The position numbers and the translations under genes are program-made. A DNA stretch of 64,000 bases. Origin: Caldimonas mangrovi (GTDB lineage: Bacteria > Pseudomonadota > Gammaproteobacteria > Burkholderiales > Burkholderiaceae_C). Positions within the stretch are counted from its first letter, which is position 1; every line of letters begins with the position of its first letter. The stretch is taken from NCBI RefSeq assembly GCF_023721835.1, contig NZ_JAMKFE010000014.1, forward strand, positions 62,001 to 126,000. The letters run 5' to 3'. The notes beneath the pieces were generated by a model, which saw only the letters and a list, made by a program, of their open reading frames with translations, did no database searches and was not told the DNA's origin. Shown piece after piece: positions 25,858 through 41,451 of the stretch.

Positions 25858-26742
25858 TCAACCCGCCTGAACCAGGGCGGTCAGCATCGCAGCCGTGCGC
25901 TGCATCAATGGCGTCGATTTCTTGTGCGCCGGCAGCACCAGGCACAAGGTGCTGGTGATCTCGGCACCGGCAAAGGGCGTGATCGCAAGGCGCGGCTGCT
26001 GCTTGGCGGAGCGCACCGCGTCCTCGCCGAGCGCCGCGTGGCCGACACCGGCCTCGACCAGCTCGAGTATGGCGGGCACGCTGGACACCTCCCACTCGAC
26101 GCGCAACTGCACGCCGGCCATCGCGGCCGCCGACTCCACCAGCGTGCGAAAGATCTGCCCACGCTGCGGCATGATCAGGGGCAGGTCGGCCAGCCGCTGC
26201 AGCGTCAGCGGCCCGGCGGGCGCCTGCCCGGCTGCGCTGATCAGCCGCAACGACTCGGTGCGCAGCGGCGTGATTTCCAGCGCCGGCAGCGGCTCGGGGT
26301 TGTAGATCAGCGCCAGGTCGATGCGGCCGGTCAGCAGCCATTCGGTCAGGTGCACCGAGAAGCCTTCGGCGATCGCCAGCCGGGCCTTCGGCAGGTCGCG
26401 CCGGAACGCGCTGACGAGCGGCAGCGTGTGCTGGCGCGCCAGCGTCGGCGGCATCGCGATGGCCACCTGGCCGATCGGCTCGTTGCGATGGGCCAGCAGG
26501 TCTGCCCGCGCCAGAGAGACGAGGTGCAGGATCTCCTGGCAATGCTCCAGCAGGCGCCTGCCGGCATCGGTGAGTTGCACGCCGCGGCCGTGGCGCAGCA
26601 GCAGCGCCTCGCGCAGTTCGGTCTCGAGCGCCCGCACTTGCCGGCTCAGGGCCGGCTGCGCCACGCCGAGCACCAGCGCGGCCTTGCTGAAACTGCCGTG
26701 CTCCGCGACATGCACGAAGGCTTCGAGCTGGTTGAGGTTCAC
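25858..26742 (-). CDS. LysR-family regulator of the adjacent LigJ/LigK/LigI cluster
   Basis: A 294-residue LysR protein with HTH FSKAALVLGVAQPALSRQVR and effector domain beginning IGQVAIAMPPTLARQHTLPL. The GTG start at 26742 is preferred because it begins NLNQLEAFVHVAEHG, the usual LysR opening; an ATG at 26775 would add 11 residues. It is divergent from the ModA-like/LigJ operon. A palindrome ATAGC-A-GCTAT in the shared region, repeated before the next operon at 31289, is its probable binding site. A pathway intermediate or substrate is the likely inducer. Confidence 0.87.
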   Translation of the reverse strand: MNLNQLEAFVHVAEHGSFSKAALVLGVAQPALSRQVRALETELREALLLRHGRGVQLTDAGRRLLEHCQEILHLVSLARADLLAHRNEPIGQVAIAMPPTLARQHTLPLVSAFRRDLPKARLAIAEGFSVHLTEWLLTGRIDLALIYNPEPLPALEITPLRTESLRLISAAGQAPAGPLTLQRLADLPLIMPQRGQIFRTLVESAAAMAGVQLRVEWEVSSVPAILELVEAGVGHAALGEDAVRSAKQQPRLAITPFAGAEITSTLCLVLPAHKKSTPLMQRTAAMLTALVQAG

Positions 26743-26786
26743 GGCGGGATTTTCGCACCCGGACCGGCGAGCCATGCCGGCGCCGT

Positions 26787-26839
26787 ATAGCAGCTATCCC
26801 GCCGTGCGGCTTGTTCGGCCCGGGGCCCCTGCTCAGAAT
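26787..26839 (+). promoter_or_regulatory. LysR operator and promoter of the ligJ operon
   Basis: The perfect palindrome ATAGC-A-GCTAT is at 26787-26797, followed by CCCG. A -35-like TTGTTC (26811-26816) and a -10-like CAGAAT (26834-26839) are 17 bp apart. The palindrome and CAGAATCC recur upstream of the Bug-receptor operon at 31289-31343 with identical 47-bp spacing, which is good evidence for a shared regulator. Confidence 0.7.
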
Positions 26840-26867
26840 CCGCCCACCGTCATCCTTCCCTTGCACC

Positions 26868-27551
26868 GTGGGCTCACCTCTGACCGGCATGTCGTCGATG
26901 GCCACTCGCCAGCTGCTGGCCGCGCTCGGCGCGGCGTTCGCAAGCGCCACCGGCCAGGCCGTGCACTTCGAGTCGGTGGGCGGTGTCGACGCGGCGCGGC
27001 GGGTGCGTGACGGCGAGGCGTTCGACATCGTCGTGCTCGCCTCGGACGCGCTCGACGGACTGGCCGCCGAAGGCCATGTGCTGCCCGGCAGCATTGCGCC
27101 GATGGCCCGGTCGCCGATGGCCGTCGCCGTGCGGGCCGGCGCCGGCCGCCCCGACATCGGCAGCGAGCAGGCGCTCAAGCAGGCCGTGCTCGCCGCCGGC
27201 CGCATCGGCTATTCGACCGGCCCGAGCGGTGCAGCGCTGCTGGGATTGCTCGAGCGCTGGGGCCTCGCCGCCGCACTGCAAGACCGCCTGCTGCAGGCGC
27301 GCCCCGGCATTCCCGTCGCGCAACTGATCGCCGCCGGCGAGGTGGAGCTGGGCTTTCAGCAGTTGAGCGAGTTGATGCACGTCGACCAGGTCGACGTGCT
27401 CGGCACGCTGCCCGCGGGCGCCGGCATCACCACGGTATTCAGCGCCGCGGTGTGCGCGCGCACCGAGCGCGCCGCCGAGGCGCGCGCGCTGCTGGACTTC
27501 ATGCGCTCGCCCGAGACAGCCGGGCTCCGGCAGCGCTGCGGCATGAGGTGA
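26868..27551 (+). CDS. ModA-like substrate-binding-domain protein without signal peptide
   Basis: A 227-residue protein resembling the type 2 periplasmic binding proteins of the ModA group: LTGMSSMATRQLLAALGAAF, FDIVVLASDALDGLAAEGHV, IGYSTGPSGAALLGLLERWG and ELGFQQLSELM. Unlike true ModA there is no signal peptide from the GTG start at 26868, so it may be cytoplasmic. No permease or ATPase gene is nearby. It is the first gene of the ligJ-ligK-ligI operon; the domain could bind a tricarboxylic pathway intermediate, or have an enzymatic role, but that is unproven. Confidence 0.7.
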   Translation: MGSPLTGMSSMATRQLLAALGAAFASATGQAVHFESVGGVDAARRVRDGEAFDIVVLASDALDGLAAEGHVLPGSIAPMARSPMAVAVRAGAGRPDIGSEQALKQAVLAAGRIGYSTGPSGAALLGLLERWGLAAALQDRLLQARPGIPVAQLIAAGEVELGFQQLSELMHVDQVDVLGTLPAGAGITTVFSAAVCARTERAAEARALLDFMRSPETAGLRQRCGMR

Positions 27552-27602
27552 GGGCCGCGCCCCGCTTTCTCACCGACGACCCCTCCATCGACGAACCCGT
27601 TC

Positions 27603-28631
27603 ATGATCATCGACGTACACGGCCACTACACCACCGCCCCGGCGGCCCTGGGCGCCTGGCGCGAGCTGCAGATCGCCGCGCTCAAGGACCCCGCCCGCAA
27701 GCCCAGCCCGTCCGCGCTGCACATCAGCGACGACGAGCTGTGCGAGTCGATCGAGGCCAACCAGCTGAAGCTGATGAAGCAGCGCGGCAGCGACCTGACG
27801 ATCTTCAGCCCGCGCGCCAGCTTCATGGCGCACCACATCGGCGACTTCGAGACTTCGGCCACCTGGGCGGCGATCTGCAACGAACTCTGCCACCGCGTCA
27901 GCCGGCTGTTTCCCGACCACTTCATCGGCGCCGCGATGCTGCCGCAGTCGCCGGGCGTCGACCCGAGGACCTGCATCCCCGAGCTGGAGAAGTGCGTCAG
28001 GGAGTATGGCTTCGTCGGCATCAACCTCAACCCGGACCCGTCCGGCGGCCACTGGACCAGCCCGCCGCTGACCGACCGCCACTGGTATCCGCTCTACGAG
28101 AAGATGGTCGAGCACGACATCCCGGCGATGGTCCATGTCAGCACCAGCTGCAACGCGTGCTTCCACACCACCGGGGCGCACTACCTCAACGCCGACACGA
28201 CGGCTTTCATGCAGTGCCTCAGCGGCGAGCTGTTCAAGGACTTCCCGACGCTGAAGTTCCTGATCCCGCACGGCGGCGGCGCAGTGCCCTACCACTGGGG
28301 CCGCTTTCGTGGCCTTGCGCAGGAGATGAAGAAGCCGCTGCTCGAGGAGCATCTGCTCGACAACATCTACTTCGACACCTGCGTGTACCACCAGCCGGGT
28401 ATCGACCTGCTTACCCGGGTGATCCCGGTGAAGAACGTGCTTTTTGCCAGCGAGATGATCGGCGCGGTGCGTGGCGTGGACCCGACCACGGGCCACCACT
28501 ACGACGACACCCGCCGCTACGTCGAGGCCACGGCCAACCTCTCGGACGACGACCGCTACTGGGTCTACGAAGGCAATGCACGCCGCGTGTTCCCGCGGCT
28601 CGACGCCGCACTGAAGGCCCAGGGCCGTTGA
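27603..28631 (+). CDS. ligJ: 4-oxalomesaconate hydratase
   Basis: A 342-residue amidohydrolase-superfamily protein, the same length as LigJ/PmdE. It has DVHGHY (4-9), MVHVSTSCNACFHTTGAHYL, PHGGGAVPYHWGRFRG and ASEMIGAVRG. LigJ adds water to 4-oxalomesaconate, giving 4-carboxy-4-hydroxy-2-oxoadipate in the protocatechuate 4,5-cleavage and gallate pathways. The next gene encodes the LigK aldolase that takes this product, so assignment by context is strong. It follows the ModA-like gene after 51 bp. Ring-cleavage genes are not in the window. Confidence 0.88.
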   Translation: MIIDVHGHYTTAPAALGAWRELQIAALKDPARKPSPSALHISDDELCESIEANQLKLMKQRGSDLTIFSPRASFMAHHIGDFETSATWAAICNELCHRVSRLFPDHFIGAAMLPQSPGVDPRTCIPELEKCVREYGFVGINLNPDPSGGHWTSPPLTDRHWYPLYEKMVEHDIPAMVHVSTSCNACFHTTGAHYLNADTTAFMQCLSGELFKDFPTLKFLIPHGGGAVPYHWGRFRGLAQEMKKPLLEEHLLDNIYFDTCVYHQPGIDLLTRVIPVKNVLFASEMIGAVRGVDPTTGHHYDDTRRYVEATANLSDDDRYWVYEGNARRVFPRLDAALKAQGR

Positions 28632-28667
28632 GCCCGTCGCCCGAAGCACCCAAGGAGACTGTCCACC

Positions 28668-29351
28668 ATGTACGAACTCGGGGTCGTCCACACCCAGATC
28701 CACCGTGCCGATCCGCACGCCGTGCAGCGGCTGGCATCGTTCGGGTCGGCCACCGTGCACGAGGCCATGGGCCGCGTCGGCCTGATGAAACCCTACCTGC
28801 GCCCGATCTATGCCGGCGCGCACGTCTCCGGCCCCGCGGTGACGGTGCTGCTGCAGCCGGGCGACAACTGGATGATGCATGTGGTGGCCGAGCAGATCCG
28901 GTCCGGTGACATCGTCGTGGCGGCAGTCACCGCCGATTGCAGCGACGGCTACTTCGGCGACCTGCTCGCCACGTCCTTCCAGGCGCGCGGCGCGAAGGCG
29001 CTGATCATCGACGCCGGCGTGCGCGACGTGAAGACGCTGACCGAGATGCGCTTTCCGGTGTGGAGCAAGGCCATCTCCGCCAAGGGGACCATCAAGGCCA
29101 CGCTGGGCTCGGTGAACATTCCCGTGGTGTGCGCCGGCATGTGGGTCACCCCGGGCGATGTGATCGTGGCCGACGACGACGGGGTGGTATGCGTGCCGGC
29201 GGCGCGCGCCGCCGCTGCCGCCGAAGCGGCGGCGGCACGCGAAGCCAACGAAGGCGCCAAGCGGGCCAGGCTCGCGTCCGGGGTGCTGGGTCTGGACATG
29301 TACCGGATGCGCGAGCCGCTGGCCCAGGCCGGCCTGCGCTACATCGACTGA
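28668..29351 (+). CDS. ligK: 4-carboxy-4-hydroxy-2-oxoadipate aldolase/oxaloacetate decarboxylase
   Basis: A 227-residue class II pyruvate aldolase of the RraA fold, matching LigK/PmdF/GalC. Key blocks are [48 protein letters not shown] and [12 protein letters not shown]; the last two carry the metal- and pyruvate-binding residues. It splits the LigJ product into pyruvate and oxaloacetate and may decarboxylate the latter. AGGAGA precedes the ATG. Pairing directly downstream of ligJ supports the call. Confidence 0.9.
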
Positions 29352-29361
29352 GGGCGAGGCC

Positions 29362-30309
29362 GTGATCGATCCGCGACAGTGGCAGGTGGGCCTGCTCGGC
29401 TATGGCGAAGTGGGGCGCATCCTCGCCGAGGACCTGCGAGCGCAGGGCGTGCGCGTCAGCTGCCACGACGTGAAGCTGGAGCACGCCGGCCATGCGGCCG
29501 GCCTGCACGGGCACGCGGCGCTGCACGGCGTGCAGCTGTGCGCGACGCCGGGCGGCCTGGCCGCGGCCAGCGATGTCCTCATCAGCGCCGTCACCGCGAG
29601 CCAGGCAGTGCCCGCCGCCGCGGCCTGTGCCGCGCAGATCCGGCCCGGCGCGTTCTACCTCGACCTCAACTCCGCATCGCCCGGCGCCAAGCAGCGCGCA
29701 GCGCACCTCGTCGACGCCGCCGGCGGCCGCTACGTCGAGGGCGCGGTGATGACCAGCGTGCCGCCCTACCGCAGCCGGGTGCCGCTGCTGCTCGGCGGCC
29801 TGCACGCGGCCGAGCTGCTCGAGCCGCTGAACGCGCTGGGCTTTGCCGCGCGCGTCGCCAGCGAGCGGCTCGGCGTCGCATCGGCCACCAAGATGTGCCG
29901 CAGCGTGATGATCAAGGGCCTGGAGGCAATGGTCATCGAAAGCTTCACGGCGGCCCGGCACCACGGCGTCGAGGACGCGGTGATCGCATCGCTGGCCGAG
30001 ACCTTTCCGGGCATCGACTGGGAGCGTCAGGCCGCGTACTTCTTCCAGCGTGTGATCGAGCACGGCCGGCGCCGCAGCGAGGAGATGCTCGAGGCCGCGG
30101 AGACGGTGCGGGAAGCGGGCCTGGAAGCGTGGAGCGCGTCCGGCACCGCCGAGCGCCAGGCCTGGGTGGCCGCAGTCGCGGACGCCGGCCTGTTCGGCGC
30201 CCGGGACGCCCCCGGCCACGCGCGCAGCAGCGACTGGCGCGTGGAAGCAGACCGTTTGCTCGACCACCTGCGCCGCCTTCACGACACTCACGGGAGCCCG
30301 CACCGATGA
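29362..30309 (+). CDS. NAD(P)-binding dehydrogenase with DUF1932 C-terminal domain
   Basis: A 315-residue protein similar to 6-phosphogluconate/3-hydroxyisobutyrate dehydrogenases. The N-terminal Rossmann motif is LLGYGEVGRILAEDL, then VLISAVTASQAVPAA and YLDLNSASPGAKQRAA; the C-terminal helical part has ATKMCRSVMIKGLEAMVIES, with a conserved catalytic-type Lys, in the DUF1932 style. It starts with GTG 10 bp after ligK and ends overlapping ligI by 4 bp, so it is in the operon. Its reaction is unknown; oxidation or reduction of a hydroxy/oxo acid in the aromatic pathway is plausible. Confidence 0.78.
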   Translation: MIDPRQWQVGLLGYGEVGRILAEDLRAQGVRVSCHDVKLEHAGHAAGLHGHAALHGVQLCATPGGLAAASDVLISAVTASQAVPAAAACAAQIRPGAFYLDLNSASPGAKQRAAHLVDAAGGRYVEGAVMTSVPPYRSRVPLLLGGLHAAELLEPLNALGFAARVASERLGVASATKMCRSVMIKGLEAMVIESFTAARHHGVEDAVIASLAETFPGIDWERQAAYFFQRVIEHGRRRSEEMLEAAETVREAGLEAWSASGTAERQAWVAAVADAGLFGARDAPGHARSSDWRVEADRLLDHLRRLHDTHGSPHR

Positions 30310-31262
30310 CCCCCACCCGTCCCGTCACGGGCGACTTCACCAAGACCCCCGGCTGGCTCGACTGGTACGACGGCCCGTCCGCGCCGCGCTTCCGGCTACC
30401 GGCAGGTGCCGTCGACGCCCATTGCCATGTGTTCGGCCCCGGCGAGTGCTACCCCTATGCGCCCGAGCGCAAGTACACGCCCTGCGACGCGTCGGCGCCG
30501 CAGCTGTTCGCGCTGCGCGACCACCTCGGTTTCGCGCGCAACGTGATCGTGCAGGCCACCTGCCATGGCGACGACAACCGGGCCATGGCCGACGCCTGCC
30601 GCGCGTCGGGCGGCAAGGCCCGCGGCGTGGCCACCGTGCGCCGCAGCATCACCGACGAAGAGCTGTGCGAACTCCACGAGGCCGGCGTGCGCGGCGTACG
30701 CTTCAACTTCGTCAAGCGTCTGGTCGACTTCACGCCCAGGGAAGAGCTGCTCGAAATCGCCGGTCGCATCGCCCGCCTTGGCTGGCACGTGGTGGTCTAC
30801 TTCGAGGCGCCCGACCTGCCCGAGCTGTGGGACTTCTTCAGTGCGCTGCCGACGCCCGTGGTGGTCGACCACATGGGCCGCCCCGAGGTCTCCAAGCCGG
30901 TGGACGGACCGGAGTTCGGGCTGTTCCTGCAGTTCATGCGCGAGCACCCGAACGTCTGGAGCAAGGTGTCCTGCCCGGAGCGCCTGTCCATCAGCGGCCC
31001 GCACGCACGCAACGGCGAAACGCGGCCGTACCGCGACGTGGTGCCCTATGCGCGCCGCATCGTCGAGACCTTTCCCGACCGCGTGCTGTGGGGCACCGAC
31101 TGGCCGCACCCCAACCTGAAGGACCACATGCCCGACGACGGCCTGCTGGTGGACTTCATCCCGCAGATCGCCGTGACCCCCGCGCTGCAGCACCGCCTGC
31201 TGGTGGCCAACCCGATGCGGCTGTACTGGCCCGAGCTGCCGGTCCCTGCGCCGCCGGCATGA
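30306..31262 (+). CDS. ligI: 2-pyrone-4,6-dicarboxylate lactonase
   Basis: A 318-residue amidohydrolase-superfamily protein. It has DAHCHVFGP with the barrel-start His pair, RKYTPCDA, GVRFNFVKRLVD, VVDHMGRPEVSKP and LWGTDWPHPN, matching LigI/PmdD. LigI hydrolyses 2-pyrone-4,6-dicarboxylate to 4-oxalomesaconate/4-carboxy-2-hydroxymuconate, the compound that LigJ uses after tautomerization. The ATG overlaps the preceding stop (ATGA). LigI members are metal-independent, unlike most of the superfamily. It is the last gene of the operon; the next promoter begins at 31289. Confidence 0.88.
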   Translation: MTPTRPVTGDFTKTPGWLDWYDGPSAPRFRLPAGAVDAHCHVFGPGECYPYAPERKYTPCDASAPQLFALRDHLGFARNVIVQATCHGDDNRAMADACRASGGKARGVATVRRSITDEELCELHEAGVRGVRFNFVKRLVDFTPREELLEIAGRIARLGWHVVVYFEAPDLPELWDFFSALPTPVVVDHMGRPEVSKPVDGPEFGLFLQFMREHPNVWSKVSCPERLSISGPHARNGETRPYRDVVPYARRIVETFPDRVLWGTDWPHPNLKDHMPDDGLLVDFIPQIAVTPALQHRLLVANPMRLYWPELPVPAPPA

Positions 31263-31288
31263 GCCGCCCGCTTCCATTCCGCCCCGGC

Positions 31289-31343
31289 ATAGCTGCTATC
31301 CCGAAACGAATCTAGGCGGGCCGGCCCGTAATTCCCAGAATCC
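31289..31343 (+). promoter_or_regulatory. LysR operator and promoter of the Bug/porin operon
   Basis: ATAGC-T-GCTAT at 31289-31299 followed by CCCG, with CAGAATCC at 31336-31343. Both elements and their 47-bp offset repeat the arrangement before the ligJ operon (26787-26841). The -35 region here (TAGGCG) is poor, which fits a promoter that depends on an activator. Confidence 0.65.
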
Positions 31344-31389
31344 ACCCGACCCGCCCGAAGCGGCCGGGACCACCACGGAGACCACCCAC

Positions 31390-32373
31390 ATGAGCAAGAT
31401 TTCGAGGCGGGCCGCTGCGGCCCTGCTGCTGGTGCTGGCCGCAGGCGTGCAGAACCGCGCCGTGGCCCAGGCTGCGGCCTACCCGTCCAGGCCGGTGCGC
31501 ATCCTCGTCGGCTACAGCGCCGGCGGCGCGGTCGACATCATCGCCCGTGCGGTCGCGCAGCAGATGACCGCTCGCCTCGGGCAGCAGGTGATCGTCGAGA
31601 ACAAGCCCGGCGGCGGCACCAACATCGCGCTGCGCGCGCTGATCGACAGCCCGGCCGACGGCTACACGCTGATGCTGGCCGCCAACGCCCTGGCCGCGAA
31701 TGTGACGCTGTACCAGCCGGCTCCCTACCGGATCGAGCGTGACATCACGCCGATCGCGCAGGTGGGGCAGGTGCCGGTGGTGCTGGCGGCCAACGCCGAC
31801 TCGAAGCTGCCCGACTTCGCCAGCCTGGTGACGCAGGCGAAAAAACAGCCCGACGCGATCGGCTTCGGCTCGCCGGGCAACGGGTCGACCCCGCATCTCG
31901 CCGTCGAGATGCTCGAGCGCGCGGCCGGTATCCAGCTGATGCACGTGCCGTACAAGGGCGGCGCGCAGGCCATGAATGACGTCGTTGCCGGCCACATTCC
32001 CACGGTGGCGGTCAACGCGCTGGAGGCACTGCCCCACGTGCGCAGCGGCAAGTTGCGCGTGCTGGCGGTGCTGAGCGCACAGCGCTCGCCGCTGTTCCCC
32101 GAGGTGCCGACCATCGCCGAGTCCGGCTTCGCGGGTTTCGAGGCGTCGGTGTGGTACGGGCTGATCGGCCCGGCCGGCCTGTCGGCCGACATCGTGAAGC
32201 TGCTGCATGCCGAGGTGCAGCGGGCGCTCGCCTCGAACGAGGTGCGCGAGCGCCTGTCCGGCGCGGGCGGGCAGGTGCGTCCCGGGCCGACCTCGGCCTT
32301 CGTCACGCTGCTCGACAAGGAGCAGCAGCGCTATGCGCGGCTGATCACCGACGCGCACATCAAGCCGGATTGA
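31390..32373 (+). CDS. Bug-family (TctC-like) tripartite tricarboxylate receptor
   Basis: A 327-residue periplasmic binding protein with an N-terminal signal peptide (LLLVLAAGVQNRAVAQA). The first strands carry YPSRPVRILVGYSAGGAVDI, then VIVENKPGGGTNIALRAL, and HVPYKGGAQAMNDVVAGHIP and EVPTIAESGFAGFEA are the usual Bug blocks. Bug receptors bind carboxylates and deliver them to TctAB permeases, or signal, but no TctA/TctB is in the window. It is the first gene of a unit with two further Bug genes and a porin, preceded by the shared LysR operator, so an aromatic carboxylate or pathway intermediate is a likely ligand. Confidence 0.9.
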   Translation: MSKISRRAAAALLLVLAAGVQNRAVAQAAAYPSRPVRILVGYSAGGAVDIIARAVAQQMTARLGQQVIVENKPGGGTNIALRALIDSPADGYTLMLAANALAANVTLYQPAPYRIERDITPIAQVGQVPVVLAANADSKLPDFASLVTQAKKQPDAIGFGSPGNGSTPHLAVEMLERAAGIQLMHVPYKGGAQAMNDVVAGHIPTVAVNALEALPHVRSGKLRVLAVLSAQRSPLFPEVPTIAESGFAGFEASVWYGLIGPAGLSADIVKLLHAEVQRALASNEVRERLSGAGGQVRPGPTSAFVTLLDKEQQRYARLITDAHIKPD

Positions 32374-37085: not shown

Positions 37086-37135
37086 ACTGTCCCGGCAAAC
37101 TGTAACCATATCGATTGGTACAGCTCACCTACAGT
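37086..37135. promoter_or_regulatory. Nested half-site array, candidate MocR operator
   Basis: ACTGT (37086-37090), ACTGTA (37099-37104), TACAG (37119-37123) and TACAGT (37130-37135) form nested inverted repeats in the gap between the MocR-type gene and the TRAP operon. Repeated half-sites on both sides of a centre fit the direct and inverted repeats used by MocR dimers. Assigned by position and pattern only. Confidence 0.5.
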
Positions 37136-37180
37136 GAGTGCGCAGCGGTGCATCCACTGCCACAACACAGGAGACAGACC

Positions 37181-38230
37181 ATGAGCGACAGAACGATCCG
37201 GCGTCGCAGCCTCATCAAGACGGCCCTGGCCGGCGCGGCCGTGGCGGGTGTCGCCGCCCCGCGCATCGCCGCCGCCCAGGCGGCCAGCGTGACCTGGCGC
37301 ATGCAGGCGCTGTGGGACGGCGGCACCACGCCGCAGAAGTTCGAGGAGGCCTTCGTCAAGCGGGTCAGCGAACTGACCGGCGGACGCTTCAAGATCAACC
37401 TGTTCGCCGCCGGCCAGATCGTGCCCGCCGCGCAGGCGTTCGACGCGGTGCGCGGCGGCGCCTTCGAGATGATGAAGACCTTCGACGGCTACGAAGCCGG
37501 CAAGATCCCTGCGTTCGCGTTCACCAGCACCATCCCGTTCGGCTTCGGCGAGAGCGACGAGTTCGAGGCCTGGTTCTACGAAAAGGGCGGGCTCGAGCTG
37601 GCTCGCCAGGCGTACGCGCCGGCCGGCCTTCACTACGTGGCACCCACCGTCTACGGCCAGGAGCCGCTGCACTCCAAGGTGCCGATCCGCAAGCTGAGCG
37701 ACCTCGCCGGCAAGAAGGGCCGCTTCGTCGGCCTGGCGTCGTCGGTGATGGGCGCGTTCGGCGTCGCGGTGACCCCCCTGCCGACCGGCGAGGTGTATTC
37801 GGCGCTGGACAAGGGCGTGATCGACATGGCCGACCGCGGCGACCTGACGGCCAACTTCGAGGCCGGCCTGGCCGAGGTCGCGAAGTACGTGATCCTGCCC
37901 GGCTTCCACCAGCCGACCACTGCCACGGCCTACGTCGCCAACCGCGCCGCGCACGACAAGCTGCCCGCCGAGTTCAAGGCGGCGCTGACCATCGCCGCGC
38001 GCGAAACGTCAGCGGCGCTGCGCCAGCGCATCCTGGTCAACGACGCGAGCGTGCTCGCCAAGTACCAGGCCAAGGGTTGCGAGATCATCCGCTTCAGCGC
38101 CGCCGACCTGGCCGCCGCGCGCCCAAAGGCGATGGAAGCCTGGCGCGCCGCGACCAAGAACGATGCGCTCGCCGGCAAGGTGCTCGACAGCCAGGTCGCC
38201 TTCATGAAAGAGCTGGGCCTGCTGGCCTGA
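37181..38230 (+). CDS. dctP: TRAP transporter substrate-binding protein, DctP family
   Basis: A 349-residue periplasmic binding protein. The N-terminus RRRSLIKTALAGAAVAG resembles a twin-arginine signal. Mature blocks are WRMQALWDGGTTPQKFEEAF, GGRFKINLFAAGQIVPAAQA and DKGVIDMADRGDL, and the late GFHQPTTATAYVANRA; DctP Arg-contact regions are recognisable. It binds the solute for the DctQM permease that follows. Linkage to HMG-CoA reductase suggests the ligand is mevalonate or a similar branched hydroxy acid. GGAGACAGACC precedes the ATG. Confidence 0.9.
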   Translation: MSDRTIRRRSLIKTALAGAAVAGVAAPRIAAAQAASVTWRMQALWDGGTTPQKFEEAFVKRVSELTGGRFKINLFAAGQIVPAAQAFDAVRGGAFEMMKTFDGYEAGKIPAFAFTSTIPFGFGESDEFEAWFYEKGGLELARQAYAPAGLHYVAPTVYGQEPLHSKVPIRKLSDLAGKKGRFVGLASSVMGAFGVAVTPLPTGEVYSALDKGVIDMADRGDLTANFEAGLAEVAKYVILPGFHQPTTATAYVANRAAHDKLPAEFKAALTIAARETSAALRQRILVNDASVLAKYQAKGCEIIRFSAADLAAARPKAMEAWRAATKNDALAGKVLDSQVAFMKELGLLA

Positions 38231-38294
38231 CGTCCCGCCGGCCGCGTCACGCCTTTCGGCGCCGCACGGCCGGCTCTTGCCGGAGCCCATCGTC

Positions 38295-38828
38295 GTGCCC
38301 GCCTGGCTGCACCTGCCCTCTCGCGCGATCACCCGCTTCAACCACGGCCTGTTCCGGCTCACCGTGTGGCTCATGGCCATCGTGGTGCCGGTGATGCTGT
38401 ACGAGGTGGTGTGCCGCTACCTGTTCAACGCGCCGACGGTGTGGGCGATGGAGCTGGCGGTGCTGCTGTTCGGCCCCTACTTCCTGCTCGGCGGGCCCTA
38501 CCTGCTGCACCTGCGCGGCCACGTGGCGCTCGACCTGGCGCATGCGCGCATGAGCCCCGCATGGCGCCGCCGCATGGACCTGCTCAACTACCCCGTCATC
38601 ATCGTGTTCTGCGCCATCTTGCTGTACTTCAGCCTGCCGTCGGCGCTGAACGCGTGGGCCTATCGCGAGACCAGCTTCTCGGCCTGGAACCCACCCATCT
38701 GGCCGGTGAAGGCCGCCGTGCCGCTGGCGCTGCTGTTGATGCTGCTGCAGGCGCTGGTCGAGTGGCTGACGGTGTGGTTCGGCTCCACGGCGCGCCATGA
38801 CGAGAGCGCCCAGGGAGCGCCGCAATGA
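38295..38828 (+). CDS. dctQ: TRAP transporter small permease subunit, DctQ family
   Basis: A 177-residue membrane protein with four transmembrane segments (WLMAIVVPVMLYEVVCRYLF; ELAVLLFGPYFLLGGPYLLH; two more to about residue 165), the usual DctQ layout, including the family's CRYLFNAPTVWAMEL region. It joins DctM to form the permease. The GTG start at 38295 has a GGAG at about 10 nt; a TTG 18 bases upstream is possible. It overlaps dctM by 4 bases. Confidence 0.87.
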   Translation: MPAWLHLPSRAITRFNHGLFRLTVWLMAIVVPVMLYEVVCRYLFNAPTVWAMELAVLLFGPYFLLGGPYLLHLRGHVALDLAHARMSPAWRRRMDLLNYPVIIVFCAILLYFSLPSALNAWAYRETSFSAWNPPIWPVKAAVPLALLLMLLQALVEWLTVWFGSTARHDESAQGAPQ

Positions 38829-40141
38829 GCCCCAACGCCATCCTGCTGCTGATGTTCGGCAGCCTCACCGTCTTCATGCTGACCGGCCTGCCGATCGCCT
38901 TCGTGCTCGGCGGTCTGTCGCTGCTGTTCACGGTGACGCTGTGGGAGCCGAACGCCGTCATCGTGCTGGTGCTGCAAATCTTCGACACCATGAAGTCAGA
39001 GGCACTGCTGGCCATCCCGCTGTTCATCCTGATGGCCTGCATCCTGCAGCGCTCGGGTGTCATCGAGGCGCTGTACCGCGCGATGGAGCTGTGGTTCGGC
39101 CGGCTCAAGGGCGGGCTCGCGATCGGCACGGTGGTGATCTGCGTCGTGATGGCGGCGATGACCGGCGTGGTCGGTGCCGCGGTCACCGCGATGGGCATCC
39201 TGGCGCTGCCCGAGATGCTGCGCCGCGGCTACGAGCCTCGGCTGGCCCTGGGCACCATCTGCGCTTCGGGCACGCTGGGCATCCTGATCCCGCCGTCGGT
39301 GCTGACCATCGTCTACGCCGTCACCGCGCAGATCTCGATCGGCCAGATGCTGATCGCCGGGCTGGCGCCCGGGCTGCTGCTCGCGACGCTGTACATCGGC
39401 TACATCCTCGTGGTCGGCTGGCTGCGCCCCGACTGGGTGCCGCTGGACCAGGACACCCGCCGCGTGCCGTGGCGCGAGAAGCTGCTGGCACTGAAGGCAC
39501 TGGCCGTGCCCGCGCTGCTGATCGTGCTGATCCTGGGCTCCATCTTCTTCGGTGTCGCAACGCCTACCGAGTCGGCCGCGATCGGTGTGGTGGGTGCGCT
39601 GCTGCCGGCGCTGAGCAGCCGCAAGCTGCGCCTGTCCATGCTGCGCGAGGCCGGCACCGACGCGCTCAAGGCCACGTCGATGATCCTGTGGATCACGCTC
39701 GGTGCGAAGGCCTATGTGGCCATCTTCACCGGCCTGGGCGGCGCCGACACGCTGCTGGAAATCATCAAGAGCCTGGACGTCAACCGCTGGCTGATCCTGG
39801 GCGCGATGATGCTGCTGCTGGTGTTCCTCGGCACCGTGCTCGACGAGCTCGGCATCATCTTGCTCACCGTGCCGGTGTTCCTGCCCATCGTGCGGCTGCT
39901 CGGCTTCGACGAGCTGTGGTTCGGCGTGCTGTATGCGCTGACGATCCAGATGGGCTACATCAGCCCGCCGTTCGGCTACACGCTGTTCTACGTGAAGGCC
40001 ACGCTGCCCAAGCACATCGGCATGGGTGCGGTCTATCGCGGCATCGTGCCCTTCTTCCTGCTGCAGATCGTCGGCCTGCTGATCTGCGCCGCTTTCCCCG
40101 ACCTGGTCACTTTTCTGCCGCGAATGATGACCAGCCGCTGA
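38825..40141 (+). CDS. dctM: TRAP transporter large permease subunit, DctM family
   Basis: A 438-residue protein with about twelve hydrophobic segments: LTGLPIAFVLGGLSLLFTVT, EALLAIPLFILMACILQRSG, GTLGILIPPSVLTIVYAV and a C-terminal QMGYISPPFGYTLFYVK block, all typical of DctM. It is the ion-coupled translocation subunit. The ATG overlaps the dctQ stop (ATGA). It leads directly into the HMG-CoA reductase gene after 17 bp. Confidence 0.93.
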   Translation: MSPNAILLLMFGSLTVFMLTGLPIAFVLGGLSLLFTVTLWEPNAVIVLVLQIFDTMKSEALLAIPLFILMACILQRSGVIEALYRAMELWFGRLKGGLAIGTVVICVVMAAMTGVVGAAVTAMGILALPEMLRRGYEPRLALGTICASGTLGILIPPSVLTIVYAVTAQISIGQMLIAGLAPGLLLATLYIGYILVVGWLRPDWVPLDQDTRRVPWREKLLALKALAVPALLIVLILGSIFFGVATPTESAAIGVVGALLPALSSRKLRLSMLREAGTDALKATSMILWITLGAKAYVAIFTGLGGADTLLEIIKSLDVNRWLILGAMMLLLVFLGTVLDELGIILLTVPVFLPIVRLLGFDELWFGVLYALTIQMGYISPPFGYTLFYVKATLPKHIGMGAVYRGIVPFFLLQIVGLLICAAFPDLVTFLPRMMTSR

Positions 40142-40158
40142 CATCGACGAGACCCTCC

Positions 40159-41451
40159 ATGGACGCCACACCGAAGAGCAGCCGGATCGCCGGCTTTCAC
40201 AAACTCGACATCGCCGGGCGCATCGACAGCGTGGCGCGTTTCGCGCAGCTGGACGCCGCCGAAAAGGCGCACCTGGCCGACACCGGCAACCTGCCGCCCG
40301 AGCTGGCCGACCACATGATCGAGAACGTGGTCGGCACGCTGAACATCCCCGTCGGCATCGCCACCAACCTGCGCATCGACGGCTGCGACCGCCTGGTGCC
40401 GATGGCCACCGAAGAATCGTCGGTGGTGGCCGCGGTGTGCAATGCGGCCCGGCAGTGCTACGACAGCGGCGGCTTCACCACGTCGATGTCGGGCATGCTG
40501 ATGATCGCGCAGGTGCAACTGACCGGCGTGAGCGACCCGCAGCACGCGCGGCTGCGCATCCTCGAGCGCGAAGCCGAGATCCGCGAGCTGTGCAACGCCT
40601 GCGACCCGGTGCTGGTGCGCCTGGGCGGGGGCTTTCGTGAACTGGAGGTGCGGGTGATCGACACGATCGCCGGCCCCATGGTGATCGTGCACCTGATCGT
40701 CGACACGCGCGACGCGATGGGAGCCAATGCCGTCAACACGATGGCCGAGCGGCTGGCCCCTCATCTGGCGCAGTGGACCGGCGCCACCAGCCGGCTGCGC
40801 ATCCTGTCCAACCTGGCCGACCGGCGCGTGGCGCGTGCGCGCTGCACCTGGAAGCTGGCCGACATCGGCGGCGAGAGCGTGCGCGACGGCATGCTCGCCG
40901 CCTACCACTTCGCCGAAGCCGACCCCTACCGCGCGGCCACCCACAACAAGGGCATCATGAACGGCATCAGCGCGGTGGTGCTGGCCACCGGCAACGACAC
41001 CCGGGCCGTGGAAGCCGGCGCCCACGCCTATGCGGCGCGCAAGGGCCGCTACGGCAGCCTCAGCACCTGGGAAGCGTCGGCCGACGGCGACCTGGTGGGT
41101 GTGCTCGAGATGCCGATGGCCGTGGGCCTGATCGGGGGCGCCACACGCGTGCACCCCACCGCGCGCCTGGCGCTGAAGATCCTCGGCGTCGACACCGCCG
41201 AGCAACTGGCCCGCGTCATCGTCGCCGTGGGCCTGGCGCAGAACTTCTCGGCGATGAAGGCACTCGCGACCTCCGGCATCCAGAAGGGCCACATGGCCCT
41301 GCATGCGCAGAACATCGCGATGATGGCCGGCGCGACCGGGCCCGAGGTCGACCTGCTGGCCCGCGTGCTGGTGGCCAAGGGCAGCGTGCGCATGGACACG
41401 GCCGAAGCAGAACTGGCCGCGCTGCGGGCCGCCACAGCCGGTGGCACATGA
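40159..41451 (+). CDS. mvaA: Class II (degradative) hydroxymethylglutaryl-CoA reductase
   Basis: A 430-residue enzyme, the length of the Pseudomonas mevalonii enzyme. It has IENVVGTLNIPVGIATNLRI, MATEESSVVAA with catalytic Glu85, DTRDAMGANAVN for cofactor binding, HNKGIMNG with catalytic Lys264, ATGNDTRAVEAG with Asp280, LVGVLEMPMAVGLIGGATRV and GHMALHAQN with catalytic His378 or His382. In bacteria of this type it runs in the oxidative direction, mevalonate + CoA to HMG-CoA. Linkage to a TRAP transporter fits growth on imported mevalonate. No HMG-CoA lyase gene is in the window. Confidence 0.9.
   Translation: MDATPKSSRIAGFHKLDIAGRIDSVARFAQLDAAEKAHLADTGNLPPELADHMIENVVGTLNIPVGIATNLRIDGCDRLVPMATEESSVVAAVCNAARQCYDSGGFTTSMSGMLMIAQVQLTGVSDPQHARLRILEREAEIRELCNACDPVLVRLGGGFRELEVRVIDTIAGPMVIVHLIVDTRDAMGANAVNTMAERLAPHLAQWTGATSRLRILSNLADRRVARARCTWKLADIGGESVRDGMLAAYHFAEADPYRAATHNKGIMNGISAVVLATGNDTRAVEAGAHAYAARKGRYGSLSTWEASADGDLVGVLEMPMAVGLIGGATRVHPTARLALKILGVDTAEQLARVIVAVGLAQNFSAMKALATSGIQKGHMALHAQNIAMMAGATGPEVDLLARVLVAKGSVRMDTAEAELAALRAATAGGT

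What the first reader, a model, noticed from the sequence alone, without database searches (positions are those of the whole stretch)
26787..31343. Two operons share an identical LysR-style promoter layout
The palindrome ATAGC-W-GCTAT-CCCG followed exactly 47 bp later by CAGAATCC occurs at 26787/26834 (before the ModA-like-LigJ-LigK-LigI operon, 45 bp from the divergent lysR) and at 31289/31336 (before three Bug receptors and a porin). The intervening DNA is unrelated, so this is unlikely to be a simple duplication. It defines a local regulon joining uptake and breakdown, and gives a concrete operator to search for elsewhere.
Basis: partly seen in the sequence, partly recalled or inferred. Interest (0 to 1): 0.75.

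Follow-up and report, generated by a model that had tools for sequence, protein, structure and literature searches.

The report
Shared LysR switch for two operons
Two neighbouring gene groups, one that breaks down lignin-type acids and one that probably imports them, carry the same promoter switch for a LysR-type regulator, and the same switch sits in front of matching genes in many related bacteria, so it looks like a real and testable control circuit of an ordinary type.

Summary
ATAGCWGCTAT lies at 26787 and 31289, each with CAGAATCC starting 47 bp further on. In the 5.52-Mb genome this palindrome occurs three times. The third copy, on another contig, lies between a paralogous lysR and a LigI-like hydrolase and also has CAGAAT at +47. 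A longer pattern, up to 3 mismatches allowed, finds only these three, all perfect. A matrix trained on 51 sites of other genomes ranks the two window sites first and second (40.5, 38.1; next 7.3; random maximum 13.0).

The full element is CAT-N11-ATAGCWGCTAK-N13-T-N23-ASAAT: I read a LysR T-N11-A box near -65, a palindrome near -54, a weak -35 and a -10 (CAGAAT). Of 43 strict matches in 35 other genomes, 37 have ModA/LigJ/LigK/TctC as first reference gene downstream, one precedes a DctA beside lysR, one a TRAP transporter, four look like background. The reading is supported: a LysR regulon joining uptake and breakdown, analogous to sphingomonad LigR. Corrections: the -35 position is conserved in the "unrelated" DNA, and two relatives keep the cluster behind one site. 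Binding and activation are untested.

The parts
25858..26742 (-). lysR, divergent LysR-type regulator; GTG start at 26742 proposed (frame is open to an ATG at 26775)
   Evidence: Pfam HTH_1 and LysR_substrate; orthologues begin at the MNL.. position
26773..26788 (+). Site 1 LysR box: CATGCC half plus N5 and degenerate right half (T-N11-A from 26775 to 26787)
   Evidence: T(-12)-N11-A(0) in 26 of 27 lysR-divergent sites and 23 of 24 other sites of other genomes
26787..26797 (+). Site 1 palindrome ATAGCAGCTAT
26810..26816 (+). Site 1 conserved CTTG / predicted -35 (TTGTTC), 17 bp from the -10
   Evidence: offset 23-26 conserved across sites; -35 role inferred
26834..26841 (+). Site 1 CAGAATCC, predicted -10 (CAGAAT); start of transcription about 26846 (inferred)
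   Evidence: A[ACG]AAT at offset 47 +/-1 in 27 of 27 lysR-divergent sites selected on the palindrome alone
26868..27551 (+). ModA-like (SBP_bac_11) protein, apparently without signal peptide; start uncertain
   Evidence: Pfam PF13531; phmmer ModA 9e-9
27603..28631 (+). LigJ, 4-oxalomesaconate hydratase
   Evidence: phmmer to 2gwg 1.3e-198 and 6dxq 1.6e-152
28668..29351 (+). [quoted passage not shown]
   Evidence: NCBIfam TIGR02798 409 bits, over the cut-off of 304.5
29362..30309 (+). DUF1932 / 6PGDH-like NAD-binding protein
   Evidence: Pfam PF09130, PF03446
30306..31262 (+). LigI, 2-pyrone-4,6-dicarboxylate hydrolase (start by eye)
   Evidence: phmmer to 4d8l 9e-107
31275..31290 (+). Site 2 LysR box ATTCC-N5-GGCAT preceded by C (T-N11-A from 31277 to 31289)
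31289..31299 (+). Site 2 palindrome ATAGCTGCTAT
31312..31318 (+). Site 2 conserved CTAGG / predicted -35 (TAGGCG), 17 bp from the -10
31336..31343 (+). Site 2 CAGAATCC, predicted -10; start of transcription about 31348 (inferred)
31390..32373 (+). TctC/Bug receptor 1
   Evidence: Pfam PF03401
32387..33394 (+). TctC/Bug receptor 2
   Evidence: Pfam PF03401
33452..34573 (+). Outer-membrane porin (open frame; likely start about 33503)
   Evidence: Pfam PF13609
34576..35592 (+). TctC/Bug receptor 3
   Evidence: Pfam PF03401

Best explanation
Both elements are binding-site-plus-promoter modules for the LysR-type regulator encoded at 25858-26742. Inferred mechanism: a tetramer of this regulator sits on a T-N11-A box centred near -65 and on the adjoining ATAGCWGCTAT palindrome near -54. 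[quoted passage not shown] Site 1 drives ModA-like-LigJ-LigK-DUF1932-LigI and, being divergent, probably also tunes lysR. Site 2 gives the downstream TctC-TctC-porin-TctC uptake genes their own promoter under the same control. Shown here: the architecture, its conservation, its rarity and its gene linkage. Inferred: regulator identity at site 2, activation, effector, transcription starts.
For: Exact layout at both places; 3 perfect palindromes in 5.52 Mb and 0 for the control; 20-letter composite with up to 3 mismatches gives 3 hits, each with 0 mismatches, control 0. Matrix from 51 unique non-own sites: 40.5 and 38.1, next best in the window 7.3, best in 11 Mb of random sequence (one strand) 13.0. 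Of 46 lysR loci examined, 29 (own included) have the palindrome at 8 or more of 10 positions in the divergent region; the 27 unique non-own ones, chosen on the palindrome alone, all have A[ACG]AAT at offset 47 +/-1 and 26 of 27 have T-N11-A. 43 strict non-own matches: 37 with ModA/LigJ/LigK/TctC as first of 15 reference genes downstream. Named Comamonas aquatica, C. sp. NoAH 10 and C. kerstersii each have two sites, one before a TctC gene divergent from lysR and one about 3 kb away before ModA-LigJ-LigK-LigI (L018, L026, L028); unnamed G003, G128, G219 and G289 have the same split with the lig site 16 kb or more away or on another contig. Strict sites associate with LigK-bearing genomes: 33 of 36 against 139 of 263 (Fisher 3e-6, relatedness not corrected). 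In this genome the one strong LysR paralogue is the one beside the third copy (39% identity, E 1.7e-53; next 1.2e-20).
Against: No binding, footprint or expression data. A generic sigma-70 scan finds no promoter in 26600-31500: by eye the hexamers are weak (-10 4 of 6, -35 3 of 6). 17 of 46 lysR loci show no such palindrome in the 300 bp upstream of lysR; G133, G296 and G011 carry it on the other side of a co-oriented lysR, G056 apparently too, G243 has a weaker version (matrix 32.5), the rest are unexplained. Only 17 of 38 genomes with a close lysR have a strict match, and 19 of 36 genomes with a strict match have no lysR at E 1e-85, though many of those sites lie beside a more distant LysR. 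In Roseateles toxinivorans (L114) and L103 the TctC genes follow LigI without a site of their own, so site 2 itself is not conserved in those two.
Confidence: 0.86

Rival explanations
1. Cross-talk: site 2 (or both sites) is read mainly by the paralogue LysR2 (contig C9), whose own promoter carries the same ATAGCTGCTAT and CAGAAT at +47; two regulators share one operator alphabet.
For: LysR2 is the nearest paralogue; 18 of 18 LysR2-type loci (own included) carry the palindrome at 8 or more of 10 positions, 10 of 18 with CASAAT at 46-48; the last base T (GCTAT) of the window sites is the LysR2 form, whereas sites elsewhere mostly have GCTAG (G 82% of the matrix).
Against: The left half is LysR-like: CATGCC and CATTCC in the window, CATAGC at the LysR2 promoter; the matrix, mostly from LysR sites, gives 40.5 and 38.1 for the window sites and 25.5 for the LysR2 site.
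Confidence: 0.12
2. One operon with a redundant internal promoter: transcription from site 1 runs through the TctC genes and site 2 is a decayed or accessory promoter with little effect.
For: Gene order is largely conserved with a 4-bp overlap of LigI and TctC1 in L114 and a 44-bp gap in L103, without a second site; the window gap is 127 bp and the scan finds no terminator in 26600-31500.
Against: The conserved blocks are intact at site 2, including a better right half (GGCAT) and CTAGG, the one departure being CATTCC for CATGCC; a decaying site should have lost more.
Confidence: 0.15
3. Copy of a promoter segment: site 2 arose by duplication of site 1 and similarity reflects recent descent, not selection.
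For: Both share CCCG after the palindrome and CAGAATCC-N-CCC.
Against: Spacer identity 15 of 36, the same as between sites of different genomes (46% of random pairs reach it), whereas functional blocks are nearly identical.
Confidence: 0.08
4. Chance or an interspersed repeat: some genomes of the family hold AT-rich elements containing TAGCTGCTAGCGC.
For: Many loose matches in some genomes (for example G085, G262, G283) are of that type; 4 of 43 strict matches look so (L155-L158).
Against: Only three copies in this genome, each with the full element; none has the repeat's flanks; score far above random.
Confidence: 0.01

Closest known systems
LigR of Novosphingobium aromaticivorans / Sphingobium SYK-6 (PMC12710314; passages and section 12 read)
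   Same: [quoted passage not shown] two target promoters flanking its gene, sites upstream of -35 (-51 to -85) overlapping a T-N11-A element; divergent from ligK.
   Different: LigR motif is TT-N-GC-N6-TTAT, not found near either site at up to 1 mismatch; here ATGCC-N5-GNYAT followed by ATAGCWGCTAK. Here a transporter operon is a likely direct target. Orthology with LigR was not tested (no LigR sequence in hand).
LysR gene labelled 'ligR' in Delftia PS-11 (PMC13141888; passages read)
   Same: The paper lists pobA, iclR-like and ligR in one cluster; L029, from the record of the same strain, has the orthologue of the window LysR next to a PcaR/PobR-type IclR gene and a 4-hydroxybenzoate hydroxylase gene, so it is very probably that gene. 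Its divergent site precedes a TctC gene.
   Different: A label by annotation; the words motif and operator do not occur in the main text. No lig genes from my reference set lie within the 19-kb L029.
Comamonas pmd (4,5-meta) operon (PMC10154247; passages read)
   Same: Same enzymes (PmdE/F/D = LigJ/K/I by recalled naming); named Comamonas loci here carry the same element before TctC next to lysR (7 of 10 Comamonas records) and, in three of these, also before the lig genes.
   Different: The passages read name no LysR regulator or operator (the word LysR does not occur).
Classical LysR promoters (BenM/CatM type; recalled)
   Same: Divergent lysR, T-N11-A recognition site near -65, second contact near -35.
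   Different: Extra overlapping ATAGC-W-GCTAK palindrome with near-fixed 46-48 bp to the -10.

Membership tests
LysR-type regulator (LTTR) and its target promoter | HTH_1 plus LysR_substrate protein encoded beside the site | tested here: met
LysR-type regulator (LTTR) and its target promoter | T-N11-A recognition site about 65 bp upstream of the start | tested here: met
   T at -12 and A at 0 in both window sites and 49 of 51 other sites; the -65 distance rests on a predicted start
LysR-type regulator (LTTR) and its target promoter | Protein binds the site and changes transcription with an effector | not testable with these tools
   needs EMSA/footprint and expression data
LigR (sphingomonad regulator of lig genes) | Linked to lig genes of the 4,5-cleavage pathway | tested here: met
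LigR (sphingomonad regulator of lig genes) | Binding motif TT-N-GC-N6-TTAT | tested here: not met
   No match within 1 mismatch near either site (3 in the window, 6.2 expected); aligned on T-N11-A both sites lack the first T, the G of GC and at least one T of TTAT
LigR (sphingomonad regulator of lig genes) | Orthologous protein | not tested
   no LigR sequence compared
Interspersed repeat | Many copies in the genome irrespective of genes | tested here: not met
   3 copies, all in promoters beside or 4.5 kb from the two lysR genes
Sigma-70 promoter | -35 and -10 hexamers 16-18 bp apart | tested here: inconclusive
   17-bp spacing and conserved CAGAAT/CACAAT, but no hit in a generic scan

The most novel reading that the evidence does not exclude
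This LysR clade runs a 'catabolic core plus exchangeable importer' regulon across the family: the same operator sits before lig genes and before whichever transporter the lineage uses (TctC, DctA, PcaK-type MFS, TRAP). In this genome, where I found no LigB-type ring-cleaving enzyme apart from a DOPA-dioxygenase relative and no recognised OMA tautomerase, it has been turned into a scavenging system for ready-made pyrone or tricarboxylic acids, with the ModA-like protein replacing the OMA tautomerase.
Probability: 0.25. Interest if true: 0.62.

Novelty: new member of a known kind. Interest (0 to 1): 0.45.

Why it matters
[quoted passage not shown] no published motif for it turned up in my searches of open papers, though one genome paper labels the Delftia gene ligR. 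It links otherwise unassigned Bug receptors and a porin to a defined catabolic pathway, which suggests their ligands. The element could be used to find pathway targets and transporters in lignin- and plastic-degrading relatives such as Comamonas.

Tried and rejected
Rejected: chance; simple duplication; interspersed repeat. My first idea, that the upstream CATGCC is the -10 of lysR, was dropped because ATGCC is also present at 8 of the 11 training sites that have no divergent lysR beside them (rows read; 38 of all 51 sites). One-mismatch palindromes in the genome carry no signal. A generic promoter and terminator scan was uninformative. Searches for a named Burkholderiales regulator of these genes and for aromatic or Bug regulons led to LigR, the Delftia label and unrelated systems. 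PMC6449761 (outline, abstract and passages seen) does not hold the words LigR, gallate or 4-oxalomesaconate in its main text. I did not obtain a LigR sequence, so orthology is open. Selection to declare: the 46 lysR loci are 16 of the 18 (two distant ones, L032 and L033, dropped) and the 30 that one search returned as loci out of 38 matching genomes; at least one genome is in both. The 27 lysR-divergent training sites were chosen on the palindrome, the 24 others on palindrome plus A[CG]AAT, so only the former test the -10; some of the 24 also lie beside a divergent, more distant lysR. Loci were picked by eye; the complete set of 45 strict matches (43 non-own, 2 own) is the basis of the counts. 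That call names genes only from 15 reference proteins, so PcaK or tautomerase genes in between are not counted as first. One of the 37 (L109, a TctC gene without lysR beside it) is weak evidence.
Full report
Observation. The octamer alone is unremarkable; the palindrome is not (0 of 100 shuffles had two). In the whole genome (5,519,315 bases, 53 contigs) ATAGCWGCTAT occurs three times and its reversed control never. The third copy, G000:C9:52951-52961, lies between a lysR paralogue (39% identical) and a LigI-like amidohydrolase (45% to LigI), and it too has CAGAAT exactly 47 bp on. One-mismatch palindromes are no more common than the control (35 places, perfect ones included, against 45).

Anatomy. 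I looked at 46 lysR loci: 16 of the 18 named loci, and the 30 loci that one search returned out of 38 matching genomes in a draw of 299 of the family (own included). 29 of 46 have the palindrome at 8 or more of 10 positions in the 300 bp upstream of lysR. With 24 further sites, 51 unique non-own sites show: CAT or TAT at -14..-12, mostly with GCC after it, A0 T1 A2 G3 C4 W5 G6 C7 T8 A9 G/T10, C23 T24 A/T25 G26, and CACAAT or CAGAAT starting at 46-48 (34 sites at 47, 13 at 46, 2 at 48, 2 not found under this narrower test). T at -12 and A at 0 make the LysR-type T-N11-A box (26 of 27 and 23 of 24). The left half ATGCC pairs with G-N-Y-A-T on the right, perfect ATGCC-N5-GGCAT at some sites (for example L094, L113, L131). 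From a start predicted 7 bp after CAGAAT, the box centre falls near -65 and the palindrome near -54. Site 1 reads CATGCC-N8-ATAGCAGCTAT-N12-CTTGT; site 2 reads CATTCC-N8-ATAGCTGCTAT-N12-CTAGG. The predicted -35 hexamers (TTGTTC, TAGGCG) stand 17 bp from CAGAAT. These are weak hexamers and a generic scan reports no promoter, as expected for an activator-dependent promoter, but this is inference.

Out-of-sample test. A matrix built only from other genomes gives 40.5 at 26787 and 38.1 at 31289; the next best place in the 64-kb window, both strands, scores 7.3, and the best in 11 Mb of first-order random sequence (one strand) 13.0. The third copy scores 25.5; its orthologue L102 was among the training sites. 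A 20-letter version of the element searched in the whole genome with up to 3 mismatches returns exactly the three known places, each with 0 mismatches, control 0.

What the element governs elsewhere. A strict pattern (TAGCWGCTA-N13-CTNG-N19..21-AVAAT) matches 45 places in 36 of 299 family genomes; the reversed control shows none in the rows printed. I read all 43 non-own places. In 37 the first gene downstream among 15 reference proteins is ModA-like (20), LigJ (11), LigK (2) or TctC (4). One more (L122) is next to lysR and precedes a DctA-type symporter. One (L148) precedes a TRAP transporter and scores 45.5 without having been used in training. Four (L155-L158) look like AT-rich background elements. 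Genome-level association with LigK: 33 of 36 against 139 of 263 (Fisher 3.2e-6); with close lysR: 17 of 36 against 21 of 263 (2.8e-8); neither is corrected for relatedness.

Uptake joined to breakdown. In 11 of the 16 named loci a looser form of the element lies divergent from lysR; in 10 of these (seven Comamonas records, and records titled Pantoea sp. 18069, Acidovorax sp. and Delftia sp.) the next reference gene is a TctC gene, in one (Roseateles sp.) ModA-like. Comamonas aquatica, Comamonas sp. NoAH 10 and C. kerstersii carry a second site about 3 kb away, in front of ModA-LigJ-LigK-LigI (L018, L026, L028). In G289 the lysR promoter is seen through the matrix only, and it was itself a training site. 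G181 has one site before ModA-LigJ and another before LigK-LigI. The same element thus serves importer and enzyme genes in more than one arrangement.

Two operons or one? In Roseateles toxinivorans (L114; the same genome as L016 and L035) and in L103 the cluster has nearly the same order (L114 has an extra SBP_bac_3 gene after TctC1; L103 lacks the ModA-like gene), LigI and TctC1 overlap by 4 bp or lie 44 bp apart, and there is a single site in front. In the window the gap is 127 bp and holds site 2. So site 2 looks like an added internal promoter; the same-genus genomes in the draw (G129, G220, G290) have no such lysR at E 1e-85 and could not date it. The spacers of sites 1 and 2 are no more alike than those of sites of different genomes (15 of 36 against 14.2 +/- 2.9), so a recent copy is unlikely.

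Which regulator. Against its own genome the window LysR has one strong paralogue, LysR2 beside the third copy (E 1.7e-53); the next scores 1.2e-20. The three operator copies therefore go with exactly this pair. LysR2-type loci in 17 genomes (18 loci, own included) all have the palindrome at 8 or more of 10 positions, and 10 of 18 have CASAAT at 46-48. The left half distinguishes them in this genome (CATGCC and CATTCC against CATAGC), which favours LysR over LysR2 at site 2, but cross-talk is open. Within a 398-genome draw of the phylum, hits to LysR at E 1e-65 or better came only from the window's family (7 genomes, own included).

Genes and pathway. LigJ, LigK and LigI are firm: together they take 2-pyrone-4,6-dicarboxylate via oxalomesaconate to pyruvate and oxaloacetate (pathway knowledge). 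[quoted passage not shown] In the window's genome, 99.99% complete, the only LigB-domain gene is most like 4,5-DOPA dioxygenase, below that model's cut-off (168.6 bits against 233), and the only PrpF-family gene is PrpF itself. The ring-cleaving step and the usual tautomerase were not found, so the inducer and substrate may be imported acids. LigC was not searched.

Comparison with the known. The nearest described system is LigR of sphingomonads (PMC12710314; passages and section 12 read): a LysR activator, two promoters, sites at -51 to -85 overlapping T-N11-A, motif TT-N-GC-N6-TTAT. It works alike; that motif is not at these sites; orthology was not tested. One genome paper (PMC13141888; passages read) labels a LysR gene of Delftia PS-11 'ligR' in a cluster with pobA and an IclR gene. 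L029, from the record of that strain, shows the orthologue of the window LysR followed by a PcaR/PobR-type IclR gene and a 4-hydroxybenzoate hydroxylase gene, so the label very probably refers to this orthologue. I saw no operator given there. My searches of open papers found no operator for a Burkholderiales counterpart; most subscription papers are outside that library. A new regulon of a familiar kind is the fair label.

Verdict. Observation confirmed; interpretation supported with the amendments above. Interest moderate: not surprising in kind, but well supported by conservation and directly testable.

Noticed in passing
window 26868-27551; operon loci: The ModA-like protein at the head of the lig operon seems to lack a signal peptide (the domain begins about 5 residues after the likely start) and did not co-occur with the PrpF-type OMA tautomerase: of 42 loci with LigJ (at least one genome counted twice, L023 cut at its edge), ModA-like only 29, tautomerase only 5, both 0, neither 8. 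It may be a non-homologous replacement of that enzyme.
   Followed up: partly
whole genome (G000); L144, L160: No LigB-domain dioxygenase other than a DOPA-dioxygenase relative, and no recognised OMA tautomerase, found in a genome 99.99% complete, although LigI, LigJ and LigK are present.
   Followed up: partly
G000:C9:52909-52975 (L003, L134): Paralogous module: LysR2, a LigI-like amidohydrolase and a TctC gene with the same promoter element; -10 CAGAAT lies 6 bp before the likely ATG, suggesting a leaderless transcript.
   Followed up: partly
L029:10013-13070 (Delftia sp. PS-11): The orthologue of this LysR lies beside an IclR-family PcaR/PobR-type regulator and a 4-hydroxybenzoate hydroxylase gene, so the regulon may reach further up the aromatic pathway there.
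   Followed up: no
genomes G085, G120, G213, G262, G283: AT-rich interspersed elements of the form TAGCTGCTAGCGCTTG...AAGCGCTAG that mimic the palindrome and could confound genome-wide motif scans in this family.
   Followed up: no
window 37115-41451: TRAP transporter genes (DctP-, DctQ- and DctM-like) followed by a frame that looks like a class II HMG-CoA reductase, perhaps mevalonate catabolism (recognised by eye, not searched).
   Followed up: no
window 29362-30309: DUF1932/6PGDH-like protein of unknown role sits inside many of the lig operons.
   Followed up: no
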